Assembly (NCBI RefSeq): GCF_019059575.1 | Contig: NW_024882890.1 | Location: forward strand, 104,819-168,818 | Source of the DNA: Amphibalanus amphitrite | Taxonomy: Eukaryota; Arthropoda; Thecostraca; Balanomorpha; Balanidae | Reading direction: 5' to 3' | DNA length: 64,000 bases | Shown: positions 21,222 through 59,170 of the stretch, one piece after another | Numbering within the stretch: the first letter of the stretch is position 1 | Layout: every line of letters begins with the position of its first letter | Made by a program: the position numbers and the translations under genes | The notes under the pieces: generated by a model | What the model was told of the DNA's origin: nothing | Databases searched by the model: none | The model's input: the letters and a program-made list of their open reading frames with translations, nothing else

Positions 21222-22123
21222 TTAACCCTCGCCCGCACATGGGGGGTTGCCACCCCCCCAGGCAGTCTTTCTGCTCTGCACTCAACATTTTTAGAGCTAG
21301 AAGGCTGATTTTTCGTATAGCTGCTCGTCTATCCTTTCTTGATGTCCACTGAAAATTTCAAGTTTCTGTGATTTTTGGTTTCGGAGATATGACCTTGTTT
21401 TTCAGGTCATGTCATGACCCAAATGGCCAATTCTCAACATCTTGCGTTTGCCATGGGCCTTGTGAGCTTTTGACACCCTGATTTCGGCCTTTTTTGCCAG
21501 TCTCACCTCCCACCTATCATGGAACATGTTGTTCGACGATGTACAGGGGTCAAAGTCAGGGTCAAGGTCAACCTAGGTCATCTAAGATAATTGCGTTTTA
21601 GGCAAGCTGAATTTACTTTTTGTGAAGTTTTTTGACTGCATTTTTGGTAAAAGCTTCTTAGATCATGATTTCATGTGATATGGACCCAAAAAAAATCGGT
21701 GCACACATCAGTATACACACAGACACACACAGACATACAAACACATATATTTGACCTTGACCTAACTTGACCTGAAATGACCTCAGCAGCAAAATTCTGG
21801 TCGGATAGTGTGACAAAGAGGTTCTAGCTGGCTTGGCACCAGAAAACAGCATCGTCATTGGTATTTGATAAGCAGCGCACTTGATATCCAACGGTGACCC
21901 AAAACAGCAACATTTTTTAGTTTGACCTGACCTGGAAGGTCAATGACTGACCTGAGAAGGTAAAACTGGGTGTCATTGGATTCGTCTCTTCCCAAAGAAT
22001 CTTTTTGGTCTTTACTGCTAAGCTCTATCTCCAACAGGAACGAAATGGCGCGGGGGGGTGGCAACCCCCCCCCCCCCATGTGCGTTCTAGGATGGGAAAA
22101 TGGCATGTGCGGGCGAGGCTTAA
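21222..22123. mobile_element. Non-autonomous TTAA element E1 with G-run/C-run caps
   Basis: TTAA (21222-21225) precedes CCCTCGCCCGCACATG, then G6-TTGCCA-C7. At the other end G7-TGGCAA-C14 is followed by CATGTGCG, a 19-bp spacer (22085-22103), and CATGTGCGGGCGAGGC before TTAA (22120-22123). The right end therefore carries the inner part of the terminal repeat twice. The interior has several TGACCT/AGGTCA words and no open frame for a transposase. TTAA duplication, CCCT termini and asymmetric sub-terminal repeats match the piggyBac pattern. Confidence 0.85.
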
Positions 22124-23761
22124 ACTTAGGGGCTACAACACTTTTAATGTGCTAAAGCCTTGAATATAATACGTCGGACTGAAACATTCCCCGAACGGCC
22201 AGCGGGGTCGGCGGGTTCCGAGCGCGCGGAAGGGAGAGTCAAGGTCTGTCGGCCGCCGGTGCCGATCAGCTGGGCATATCGGCCAGCCCGGCCCGTGATT
22301 GATGACCCCGTGTGACCCTGGGTGACCAGCGCGGCCGCCATACATCACACGACCGCCAGCGGCTAATGATTTTATGAACCTGCGCCGCGCGGCTATCGTT
22401 CCGCTGCAGCACGCTTATGGAAATACGGTCGTGACAAGGAGAGAAACGCGAGCCCGCACGCCGAGACGCCATCACCGACAATTCATTAGAATCCCACGCA
22501 GTCGACTGTTACGCCAAGCTGGAGGTCGTGTTATGCAAGTGGCGATGAATATGAACGGGGCGCTAGCCATGAGGTCCGACGGAAAACGTTTCCTACTCGA
22601 CGCTCCTTCCCGAGACGGATTTCTCACGTCGGTTCATGGTTTGGGGATGACGGGGGTCCTGGAATATACATGAGCAAATGGAATGCTGTTTCCGTTTATT
22701 TTGTTATGTATGTCTACTGGCCAACGACTCAGGTTTCGCCCTGCTCTCGTAGTGCTGTGCTGAATGGTCTCGCTCGCCAAGGGCCGTGCGGCAGAGCAGC
22801 CGCCTGAAAGGATTGGGATATACTGTGCCGCAGTGCACGCTGGATAGTTGCCGACTCCTCCCCCAGATGGCAACACTAGCTGGCTCGGAGTGGAGACTGG
22901 CCTCTGTGCCCAGTCCCACGCAGTAGCGGCGGAACACCTTCAATTAAGGGGGGAGGGGGGGGGGGCACTGCCGACTTTTGGTCCCATTCTTTCCATGCAA
23001 CGCCCATAGGGCTAATGTTAAAATGGCAAAGTCAAAGGGAGGCACGGTGCCCCGGTGCCCTCCCCGTTCCGCCCCATATGTGCCCAGGCCGATACGTTCG
23101 CGGAATAAAGGTTTCTCAAGTGGTCTGGCACCTGAATTCATTCTCCTGACTTTGCTTACCCAATTTCGCATTTGTTGTGTCAGATTAAATGATTTTCCTG
23201 TGATCACCGTGAATTTTTTTCGAATACGGAGATCCGGCTTCTCTTCAGACGTTTAAGCAATTAACGGCCATCGCTTCTGACCAGCGCTGTTTTTGGTAAT
23301 TATTCTGTCATAATTACCTCGGCGGCAACCCTTTTTAATTTGAGGAGAGCTGCCCCCATGTTCGTCATTTATCACTCAGACTGAATGCGTAATAGGCCCT
23401 ACTCCAAATTAGACGGTACGGTTTCTGGTTTCTTCCGATTCATTATTTACGTATACAAGCAGTTGGCTAACTTGGCCGTCGTAGCCAAACGTCAGCAATT
23501 AATGACAATACCAATTTCCGCATTCCATTTAAATACAACTGCAAAAACACATAGCCAGTTCATCATTATCATCTTCTTTCGGCGGATTATCTTACCCATG
23601 TTCTGATGTACAATCAGCTCCAAACAGAGGACTCACACCACCGCCACCGGCGAAATCCGCCCCAACACCAGCTGCGTCGCCGGACGGAGTGGTGTGTCAC
23701 CAGTCGGAGCACCATTGGTGATGCTGGAGGCGTGTCCCCGGCTGTGCCACCCTCGGCCCCG

Positions 23762-23806
23762 TGGCGGCGGCGGCGGCGGCGGCGGCGGCGGTGGCGGCGG
23801 CGGCGC
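23762..23806 (+). repeat. (GGC)n trinucleotide repeat
   Basis: About 14 GGC units with one GGT interruption. It lies in the BCL11 intron, so the poly-Gly and poly-Pro frames are not taken as coding. Confidence 0.9.
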
Positions 23807-56756: not shown

Positions 56757-56940
56757 CCTCTCTCTCTCTTTCTCTCTCTCTCTCTCTCTCTCTCTCTCTC
56801 TCTCTCTCTCTCTCTCTCTCTCTCTCTCTCTCTCTCTCTCTCTCTCTCTCTCTCTCTCTCTCTCTCTCTCCCTCTCTCTCTCTCTCTCTCTCTCCTCTCT
56901 CTCTCTCTCTCTCTCTCTCTCTCTCTCTCTCTCTCTCTCC
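56757..56940 (+). repeat. (CT)n microsatellite, about 180 bp
   Basis: Nearly pure CT with a few C or T interruptions, the longest simple repeat in the window. The Ser-Leu and Glu-Arg frames over it are artefacts. Confidence 0.97.
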
Positions 56941-58267
56941 TTCTCCACACTCTACCTGTTTACGTCGATCGCCGTCCACCATTTTGTATCCCGCACGGCT
57001 CGGCCGCTACCGATCCCCTCTGGTCGTTCGGTAGGGGGGCGGCGGCGGCGGCGGCGGTCCGGCCGGCCGGCCGCGCGCGCTTTTTTCTCTCTCCCTCCGC
57101 GCGGGGCGGTCGCCGACGATCGATGATACGGCGGCCATGCTGGTTCGTCGAGACCGACGCGCCGCCAATGGCGACACGACCGCTGTCCGGCCGACACGGC
57201 TGGACGCGGCGTACGTCGCCGCCGTAAACATGGTGAGAGCGTCGATATACCGGCCATCGATCGGCGGCAGCGCAGGGAGGAATGTAAAATATAATTTGAA
57301 TCACCATTGCTTTGACACGATTAAATGTACATATAGAAATACAAAAGTGTTTTGAGCTTGATTTTATTGAGAAAGGTCATCTGTCTCATTTTCCTACCAA
57401 AGGAAAATATTGTTAACGAAGTCTTCGAGAAACTGGCTCGAAGAATTGAGCATTACGGTAAAAAAAAAAAAAACTGGAGCGCCCACAAACACTGTTATCG
57501 GTTAAGTTGTTTTTACTTTGAGTTATGGTTCATACTGGACGATTTTAAACATAACTATGTACATAGTCTGTGCACTTCTTTCAGGCTGCAGGCCGAAGAA
57601 TTTGTAAGCTTGAGACAATTTTCTATGGCGAACGGATGATAGAAATAAAAATGCTGCATTATGCATTCTGCATTACGGATGAGTATTAACTCCGTTAGTG
57701 AGTCGCTAGTTTCTTAGAAGTCAATGCAAATGCAAAAACAAAAATATGTGAATACAAAAAGCTAAGAGAATATAAGAACATCCTGCAAACGTCCGACGAT
57801 TCAAAGCAAAGTAGGTAAGTTTGCTAATACTAATAATAAAAACATGAATTACTTTCCAATGGATAAGATGATTGCCATAAAAGAATACTACGTCATGTGC
57901 TTTGCAGGATGAAGACATTGAGGGATCAGTCTGGGGCGGGCATACTCGAAGGGTTTCTTCGAAATTTCAACATTGCAATTAGCTCCCTTATGCGCTTCTG
58001 TGGAATTTAATGCAAACTTGTGCTGCTAAAGTGAAGCTGTTTTCGAGCCGTTTGCTCTAGATGCACAGTATATTTTCGTCAGTTTTAGACGGTATGAAAC
58101 ATGTACCCTTAAGCTCTTTGAGCTCCCATGATCAGAATCAGATTAGTAGGTATATTGTATACGATATTTACTTATTGTTTACGAATGCTGAATACTCATA
58201 CATATTCAATTGTTCATATCTTTAGTTTTGCTTTCTTGAATTCCAATGACTGGTGATTTAAACGACT
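56941..58267. other. Non-coding stretch, no gene seen
   Basis: A GC-rich block at about 56990-57270 followed by AT-rich DNA. No gene or RNA was recognised. Confidence 0.5.
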
Positions 58268-59170
58268 TTAACCCTATTAGTGGCAGGCTCCTGGCTACCC
58301 CTATTAGTGGCAGGGGGGCTGTTTACGACCCCCCTTGATATCTCGAGACCTAACGGGCCGATTTTCAAAATTCAAACGCATTCGATTTCGCTCAACGTGA
58401 TCTACATTTCTAAAAAAAAAAAAAAATTAAAAAAATGTCAATAGGGGGGTAGAGGGGGGTAAAAACGGGCAAATTGCAGATACATTTTAGACTGTTTATC
58501 ACGGCCAGGTTTCTGAACCAATCTTAACGCAACTTTTGCCGATCGATAGAGAATGAACCAGGAGTTCACATGGATCCTAAAAATATGCATTTCCAAAAAT
58601 CATAGGCGGATACAGATCATTGAGATTGGGGGTACACAAAAAGTATAGTAAATAAGGTTTTTGTTGGTACTGTTTCTAAAAAGGGTGGTAATGGTCTTGT
58701 TATGTTACAATTTTCTTATGAGAGAACGACTACAATTGTATTGGTCATGCATAGGCGGTGTCAGGGCACCTATGTTGGAGGGTAAAACATAACCCCCTTT
58801 TTGGACGCTTGGATCCGCCTATTATAGCAAAAACGTGTCAAAAGAGGATGCACAATAATTTTGTATATGTTATCACATGATACCTTTCATTCACTGTTCG
58901 TAAAACTGGTGCATACAGTTATAATACACCAGCATCGTGATCTTCGCCCAAATGACTCGCTTCACGAATAGGACCCTCCAATTCCCAGTGCTCTGGAGCC
59001 GCCCCTGGTAAAGTTATGAACTTGAAATTTCCAGGGAATGTGCCCATTTTAGTTTTAGGAAAAGTCAGGAAATTTCAGCATCATAGCTTCAGCGGCTTAG
59101 GAGATATTCCCGAAAAAACCTGAGGGGTGGATGAAAACAACCCCCCCCCCCCTGCCACTAATAGGGTTAA
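58268..59170. mobile_element. TTAA element E6 with G-run/C-run caps
   Basis: TTAA (58268-58271) precedes CCCTATTAGTGGCAGG, a spacer of about 11 bp, and a second CCCTATTAGTGGCAGG running into a G-run, CTGTTTACGA and a C-run. The right end is compact: GGATGAAAACAA, C-run, CCTGCCACTAATAGGG and TTAA (59167-59170). The 16-bp terminal repeats are perfect. The interior includes the CGATTTTCAAAATTCAAACG phrase seen in other capped elements. No transposase is visible. Confidence 0.92.

What the first reader, a model, noticed from the sequence alone, without database searches (positions are those of the whole stretch)
21222..59170. Six TTAA/CTAA transposons share one end architecture despite unrelated terminal sequences
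E1 (21222), E2 (34859), E3 (37851), E4 (42440), E5 (46852) and E6 (58268) each have: a 4-bp YTAA duplication; a terminal repeat of about 10-17 bp, different between most of them; and at both ends a G-run, a 6-15-base spacer and a C-run. In all six, one end is compact (terminal repeat straight into the G-run). The other has a spacer of about 11-25 bp and then a second copy of the inner terminal repeat. The canonical piggyBac element also has TTAA targets and sub-terminal repeats at unequal distance from its two ends. The strong G/C caps are not a piggyBac feature that I know. They could form hairpins or G-quadruplexes, protect ends or position a transposase. This may be an undescribed non-autonomous superfamily or group.
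Basis: partly seen in the sequence, partly recalled or inferred. Interest (0 to 1): 0.85.

Follow-up and report, generated by a model that had tools for sequence, protein, structure and literature searches.

The report
piggyBac-type mini-transposons with G/C-run ends
Six small gene-less jumping elements in an animal genome have largely different end sequences but the same lopsided end layout, almost to the base, that the piggyBac transposon uses to load its enzyme, so they are best read as piggyBac-type hitch-hikers with an unusual G-run/C-run version of one enzyme-binding site.

Summary
All six elements exist at the stated coordinates with matching 4-bp duplications (4 TTAA, 2 CTAA). Each has one compact end and one doubled end, and a G-run/core/C-run near every end. 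The doubled end carries the inner terminal-repeat motif and the start of the G-run a second time, shifted by 27, 27, 27, 28, 30 (28 from CCC) and 27 bp. The extra spacer is 17 bp in 4 of 6 and 18 bp in 2 of 6, although its sequence is unrelated between elements. That is the published plan of Trichoplusia ni piggyBac: a 17-bp insertion plus a duplicated bp 7-16 motif on the right end, and a palindrome for the transposase CRD dimer from bp 17 (PMC7351741, passages). The G/C caps sit in that palindrome's place, but their centres do not keep the 27-bp shift. E4 sits cleanly in a LINE frame. Best reading: non-autonomous piggyBac-superfamily elements, not a new superfamily. The long G/C-run caps and co-varying end modules are an unusual variant; I saw no description of it in the literature listings and passages examined. 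No transposase or genome-wide copies could be examined: the genome server did not complete.

The parts
21222..22123 (-). E1, 902 bp with both TTAA copies; compact end at left (G-run from bp 16), doubled end at right (G-run from bp 43, motif offset 27)
34859..37641 (+). E2, TTAA; doubled end left (G-run bp 42), compact end right (bp 15), motif offset 27; interrupted by a hAT-like element
35217..37136 (.). hAT-like element nested in E2, with its flanking 8-bp repeats GTTAGAAG; terminal repeats CAGGGTTGTATAC / GTATACAACCCTG
37851..39264 (+). E3, CTAA; doubled end left (G-run bp 41), compact end right (bp 14), motif offset 27; internal 214-bp stretch repeated at 98%
42440..43622 (-). E4, CTAA; compact end left (bp 14), doubled end right (bp 42), motif offset 28; inserted in a LINE reverse-transcriptase frame
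46852..47893 (+). E5, TTAA; doubled end left (bp 45 from TTAA, 43 from CCC), compact end right (bp 15), motif offset 30 (28 from CCC)
58268..59170 (+). E6, TTAA; doubled end left (bp 42), compact end right (bp 15), motif offset 27; 16-bp terminal repeat present in three copies
34213..34858 (+). E7, older relative of E5, left part: TCAA then CCCT..., G-run at bp 42; cut by E2
37642..37850 (+). E7, second part, between E2 and E3; 76% identical to E5 over 159 bp
9390..9846 (+). E8, interior fragment 87% identical to E5 over 459 bp; no ends seen
21241..21259 (+). G/C cap of the E1 compact end, GGGGGG TTGCCA CCCCCCC (example of the proposed CRD-site equivalent)

Best explanation
E1-E6 are non-autonomous DNA transposons of the piggyBac superfamily, moved in trans by piggyBac-type transposases encoded elsewhere. 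Each end is a row of transposase-binding modules: a tip (bp 1-6), an inner motif (about bp 7-16) read by the transposase core, and a G-run/core/C-run inverted repeat starting near bp 15, which stands where piggyBac has the palindrome read by the CRD dimer. At one end, 17-18 bp of free sequence plus a second copy of the inner motif push the inverted repeat inward by about 27-28 bp. That makes room for an outer catalytic dimer and an inner structural dimer on the same end, so one compact and one doubled end are needed to synapse. SHOWN: target duplications, the near-constant motif offset, polarity for the ends that can be aligned, module matching within each element, and clean insertion of E4. 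INFERRED: that a piggyBac transposase acts on them, that the caps are CRD sites, and that two dimers assemble.
For: (1) Motif offset 27/27/27/28/30(28)/27 bp and spacer 17/17/17/18/18/17 bp (E5 counted from CCC). In piggyBac the right end has a 17-bp insertion plus a duplicated motif, and its bp 34-63 are almost identical to left-end bp 7-35. Scrambling the second motif, or adding 5 bp, cut transposition by about half (PMC7351741, passages). (2) Spacer sequences are not alike between elements (mean local score 8.2; shuffles 7.67, sd 0.47; 49 of 300 shuffles as high), so length is kept and sequence is not. (3) The inner motif is 89% identical within an element (18 comparisons) and 31% between elements (135). 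The cap core of one end matches the other end of the same element better than in any of the 719 other pairings (cores delimited by hand). (4) Where ends can be aligned inside the caps, like goes with like. Doubled-doubled: 4 of 15 pairs above z 4 (E4/E6 16.3, E1/E5 11.4, E2/E4 7.8, E4/E5 4.1). Compact-compact: 4 of 15 (E4/E6 9.5, E5/E6 9.3, E4/E5 7.5, E1/E6 6.9). Doubled-compact of different elements: 0 of 30 (mean 0.66, maximum 3.9). (5) Deleting E4 plus one CTAA restores an open LINE frame across the junction (RVT_1, E 1.4e-36). (6) CTAA and TTAG duplications and CCCTC/CACTA tips are reported among animal piggyBac elements (PMC10813416, passages), and CTAA in 0.85% of Pokey insertions (PMC3849761, passages). 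(7) A degraded relative, E7, also has its G-run at bp 42. (8) None of the 13 stop-to-stop frames of 60 aa or more inside the elements (hAT part of E2 left out) reaches a Pfam cut-off, as expected for non-autonomous elements.
Against: No transposase gene was seen; outside the elements only three ORFs and one short stretch of the nested hAT were scanned with Pfam, not the whole window. No other genomic copies could be examined. The constant is the motif plus the start of the G-run, not the cap as a whole: cap cores line up at offsets of 34 (E1), 21 (E2), 25 (E3), 28 (E4), 31 (E5) and 21 (E6), and in E1 and E3 that alignment scores higher than the one at 27. Cap centres lie at bp 25, 32, 30, 29 and 31.5 in the compact ends of E1, E2, E4, E5 and E6, with no clear inverted repeat in the E3 cap; piggyBac's is near bp 25. 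G-run length differs between the two ends of one element (E1 6 and 13, E2 13 and 5, E6 12 and 6). Four of 12 caps fold little or no better than shuffles (both of E3, E1 right, E6 right). Only 6 of 12 tips fit CC[C/T]T and 8 of 12 begin CCC. E3's doubled end aligns with no other end above z 3.0, and most end pairs are not alike at all. The six share descent at least in part, so the six offsets are not six independent observations.
Confidence: 0.86

Rival explanations
1. A new TTAA-targeting superfamily, not piggyBac, that arrived at similar ends.
For: No transposase seen; long G/C caps not described in the passages read; CCCGC and CACGC tips are not among the four tip motifs named in PMC10813416.
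Against: Spacer and motif offset equal those of piggyBac to within 1 bp, or 2-3 bp for E5 if its extra AA is counted; targets fall within the recorded piggyBac range.
Confidence: 0.09
2. Kolobok-type elements, another TTAA-targeting superfamily.
For: TTAA duplications.
Against: Kolobok elements have RR / AG-type tips (PMC6004289, passages). E1-E6 start CCC, CAC, GCC or CCT, or AA in E5's left end if its two extra A are taken as the tip. The window has a separate TTAA element with AGG tips at 13926-14794 that fits Kolobok better.
Confidence: 0.01
3. Within the piggyBac reading, the constant spacing is inertia, not function: the elements come from one ancestor and indels are rarer than substitutions, so length outlasts sequence.
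For: Shared ancestry of some ends and interiors; only six elements; cap centres did drift.
Against: The elements differ greatly in length (894-1406 bp without E2), while a spacer whose sequence is no longer alike varies by 1 bp. The same length occurs in T. ni piggyBac, which is sensitive to 5 extra bp there.
Confidence: 0.25
4. The caps act as DNA structures (hairpin or G-quadruplex) that protect or expose ends, rather than as a protein-binding palindrome.
For: Several caps fold well as single strands (E4 left -19.8 kcal/mol, z -3.35; E5 z about -3; E2 right z -3.10). Cap centre and run length vary, as a structure might allow.
Against: E3 caps do not fold better than shuffles (z +0.30 and +0.23) yet E3 keeps the geometry; cores match between the two ends of each element, which a structure alone would not require.
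Confidence: 0.1

Closest known systems
Trichoplusia ni piggyBac, LE35/RE63 ends (PMC7351741, passages only)
   Same: TTAA target; tip, bp 7-16 motif, then palindrome at the compact end; 17-bp insertion plus duplicated motif at the other end; 27-28 bp offset.
   Different: piggyBac's palindrome is a 19-bp sequence with an A-tract, not G- and C-runs, and recurs with the motif; here the cap centre drifts. Sequence motifs differ; piggyBac carries its transposase gene.
Coral CMITEs (PMC2872659, parts 1-3 of 4 read)
   Same: Non-coding TTAA elements tied to piggyBac, terminal repeats differing between families, conserved inner part; the 60-bp internal consensus begins AGGGGTTCCCC, a short G/C palindrome.
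   Different: About 100 bp long; no compact/doubled asymmetry is described in the parts I read; the place of the G/C palindrome relative to the tip was not checked.
piggyBat of Myotis lucifugus (PMC11707139, passages; PMC13405395, abstract and one results section)
   Same: Core-read motif at bp 11-16 followed by a palindrome at bp 19-30; repeated motifs; outer and inner dimers on asymmetric ends.
   Different: Repeats every 44 bp on the left end; the right end has no palindrome.
Pokey and mPok MITEs of Daphnia (PMC3849761, passages only)
   Same: piggyBac superfamily, large MITEs (about 750 bp), repeats near the ends as in other piggyBac elements, occasional CTAA duplications.
   Different: 12 or 16 bp terminal repeats, rDNA target bias, no G/C-run caps in the passages read.

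Membership tests
piggyBac superfamily | 4-bp TTAA target duplication (variants such as CTAA recorded) | tested here: met
   TTAA 4 of 6, CTAA 2 of 6; CTAA recorded in piggyBac elements
piggyBac superfamily | C-rich terminal repeats of about 12-19 bp beginning CC[C/T]T (PMC2872659) or CCC | tested here: inconclusive
   CCC at 8 of 12 tips (E5 left after two extra A), CAC at 2 (E2), CCT at 1 (E3 right), GCC at 1 (E1 right); CC[C/T]T strictly at 6 of 12
piggyBac superfamily | asymmetric ends with duplicated inner motif after a 17-bp insertion, offset 27-28 bp (as in T. ni piggyBac; not in all members) | tested here: met
   offset 27-28 in 5 of 6, 30 in E5 (28 measured from CCC)
piggyBac superfamily | palindromic CRD-binding internal repeat near bp 17-35 | tested here: inconclusive
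   a G-run/core/C-run starts at bp 14-16 in 6 of 6 compact ends, but its length and centre vary, E3 shows no clear inverted repeat there, and 4 of 12 caps fold little or no better than shuffles; binding not testable
piggyBac superfamily | DDD transposase with C-terminal cysteine-rich domain | not testable with these tools
   non-coding elements; genome search unanswered six times
piggyBac superfamily | clean insertion at the duplicated tetranucleotide | tested here: met
   E4: LINE frame continuous after removal of element plus one CTAA. Only E4 gave a clear test; around E2 the alignment of E7 with E5 is too gapped to show the exact site, and beyond E3 it was not aligned
Kolobok superfamily | RR / AG-type tips next to TTAA | tested here: not met
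   11 of 12 tips start CCC, CAC, CCT or GCC; E5's left end reads AACCC after TTAA; criterion from PMC6004289 passages
MITE / non-autonomous element | no transposase frame, inverted repeats, target duplication | tested here: met
   13 of 13 stop-to-stop frames of 60 aa or more within the elements (nested hAT left out) have no Pfam match at its cut-off; best E 0.011, DUF3433, below its cut-off

The most novel reading that the evidence does not exclude
A piggyBac lineage whose ends are a modular address code on a fixed chassis. The 10 + 17 bp geometry is held constant by the two-dimer synapse, while the core-read motif and cap core are replaced together, in all their copies, whenever a lineage switches to a different transposase. 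The G- and C-run caps would be length-tolerant CRD half-sites, explaining why run length and cap centre may drift between the two ends of one element.
Probability: 0.3. Interest if true: 0.72.

Novelty: new variant of a known kind. Interest (0 to 1): 0.52.

Why it matters
The asymmetric end of piggyBac was called puzzling by those who solved its structure. Here six natural elements with different recognition sequences keep the same 10-bp motif plus 17-18 bp spacer. If this holds genome-wide, it is sequence evidence that the geometry, not the sequence, is what the two-dimer synapse needs, and it gives an end-signature for finding such elements where no transposase is present. It also gives a set of natural motif variants for working out how piggyBac transposases recognise their ends.

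Tried and rejected
Viral contigs were scanned for TAACCC-N9-13-G7-N6-12-C6: 8 stretches. A relaxed scan of the fetched stretches gave no facing compact/doubled pair; the few hits in L002, L004 and L006 all lie on one strand. I take the 8 for chance matches or terminator-like hairpins; L003 and L005 show the same sequence around the match. An interior 22-mer pattern present in E3, E5 and E8 found nothing in viral or prokaryote contigs, as expected for an animal genome.

Six requests to search the window's own genome did not complete, so copy number, autonomous partners and genome-wide spacing are untested.

Kolobok membership was rejected on tips. Hairpin/G-quadruplex caps as the main function were judged unlikely because E3's caps do not fold better than shuffles. 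The idea that the caps are chance G/C runs in a GC-rich genome was rejected. Literature searches on piggyBac MITEs with G-rich, palindrome, asymmetric, CTAA or YTAA terms, and on AGGTCA repeats in MITEs (no paper returned), showed no description of this end type. For most papers listed I saw only title and start of abstract; only the open-licence library was searched, and Repbase was not available.

My first fold of the E3 right cap was cut short by two bases, and that of the E2 right cap carried two extra bases at its outer side and lacked the innermost ones; both were refolded, with no change of verdict.
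Full report
What was checked. The window is animal DNA. An open frame at 30329-32560 has several C2H2 zinc fingers; I take it for a BCL11-type gene from memory, and the animal origin rests on that and on the mobile elements seen. A LINE-type reverse transcriptase lies at 43453-44712 (RVT_1). 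The six elements were read and their ends extracted. In every case the same four bases flank both ends: TTAA for E1, E2, E5 and E6; CTAA for E3 and E4. A search of all 4-bp duplications with inverted 14-mers (12 or more of 14 matching, 80-6000 bp apart; 29 pairs) put E6 and E2 on top with 14 of 14, E1 at 13 (level with five other pairs) and E3 at 12. E4 matched 14 of 14 in the CTAA listing of that call but was removed from the ranked list by its complexity filter. E5 was missed, I think because of two extra A at its left end.

The end plan. Sliding each element's compact end along its doubled end, the inner motif plus the start of the G-run recurs at an offset of 27 (E1), 27 (E2), 27 (E3), 28 (E4), 30 (E5; 28 if counted from CCC) and 27 bp (E6). 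The same listing shows that the caps themselves line up at other offsets (34, 21, 25, 28, 31 and 21), because the G-runs differ in length; in E1 and E3 the cap alignment is the higher-scoring one. Defining the inner motif as the 8 bases before the G-run plus 2 G, the sequence between its two copies in the doubled end is 17, 17, 17, 18, 18 and 17 bp long (E5 counted from CCC). In E5 the first copy is only partly kept. The inserts are not similar between elements. A scan for the plan finds the 12 ends plus one chance hit; shuffled windows average 0.49 and 0.88 hits.

Match to piggyBac. In the passages I read of the piggyBac structure paper (PMC7351741), the left end of 35 bp has a tip, a stretch at bp 7-16 contacted by the DNA-binding core, and from bp 17 a 19-bp palindromic repeat that binds two CRDs. 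The right end of 63 bp has a 17-bp insertion and a duplicated motif, and its bp 34-63 are almost identical to left-end bp 7-35. The authors infer a second, inner dimer, and report that five extra bp or a scrambled second motif cut transposition by about half. E1-E6 have the same order of modules and nearly the same lengths. The later piggyBat structure (PMC13405395, abstract and one results section) shows an outer catalytic and an inner inactive dimer on asymmetric ends.

Modules change together. Within an element the copies of the inner motif are 89% identical on average (18 comparisons); between elements 31% (135 comparisons). Tips are more alike between elements (68%). The cap core between G-run and C-run also pairs best with the other end of the same element: none of the 719 other pairings scores as well. 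This is what recognition by different but related transposases would give; that cause is inference.

Polarity and nesting. Of the stretches just inside the caps, 4 of 15 doubled-doubled pairs and 4 of 15 compact-compact pairs exceed z 4, against 0 of 30 doubled-compact pairs of different elements. So where homology can still be seen, the asymmetry is an inherited polarity; E3 gives no clear signal. E5 is 87% identical over 459 bp to a fragment at 9390-9846 (E8). It is also alike, over 505 and 159 bp, to an older element (E7) that has since been hit by E2 and, it seems, by E3. E7's left end still shows CCCT and a G-run at bp 42. E4 lies in the LINE frame; without E4 and one CTAA the frame reads through the junction. 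E5 lies inside a hAT-like MITE with 8-bp repeats GTGCACAG, and E2 contains a hAT-like element with 8-bp repeats GTTAGAAG.

The caps. As single strands most caps fold into hairpins, strongly in E4 and E5; both of E3's, and the right caps of E1 and E6, fold little or no better than shuffles. Cap centres in the compact ends lie at bp 25 (E1), 32 (E2), 30 (E4), 29 (E5) and 31.5 (E6), with none clear in E3; in the doubled ends of the same five at about 59, 53-55, 58, 59.5 and 53. So E1's compact end has piggyBac's value and the others do not. This is the weakest point of the CRD-site reading. Slippage in homopolymers after insertion, or tolerance of the protein for run length, could explain it; neither was tested.

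The interior. None of 13 frames of 60 aa or more inside the elements matches a Pfam family at its cut-off. The hexamer AGGTCA/TGACCT occurs 12, 21, 16 and 21 times in E1, E3, E4 and E5 (maxima of 200 shuffles: 3, 3, 4, 3), 3 times in E2 without its hAT (maximum 2) and 0 times in E6. In those four elements it comes in clusters (hits within 60 bp joined) 172 bp apart on average (sd 23, 15 intervals); none of 1000 random placements at each of three minimum separations was as regular. Because the elements are related and E3 has an internal duplication, these intervals are not independent; in E4 the clusters fill only the half next to the doubled end. Its meaning is unknown to me.

Verdict. Non-autonomous piggyBac-superfamily elements with an unusual G-run/C-run cap: a new variant of a known kind. 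The main gap is the missing transposase and genome-wide copies.

Noticed in passing
E1, E3, E4, E5 interiors (21222-22123, 37851-39264, 42440-43622, 46852-47893): Clusters of AGGTCA/TGACCT (nuclear-receptor half-site-like, recalled) spaced about 172 bp apart, far above shuffles; absent from E6.
   Followed up: partly
13926-14794: Another TTAA element, 13 of 14 matching terminal repeat starting AGGTAGTGTGCCAC; tips fit Kolobok.
   Followed up: partly
35217-37136: hAT-like element with 8-bp repeats GTTAGAAG nested in E2.
   Followed up: partly
46720-48035: hAT-like MITE with 8-bp repeats GTGCACAG that hosts E5.
   Followed up: partly
41475-41612: U2 snRNA-like stretch, 45.9 bits against a gathering score of 46, probably a pseudogene.
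   Followed up: partly
38242-38681: A 214-bp stretch of E3 repeated in tandem at 98% identity, a recent duplication inside a transposon.
   Followed up: no
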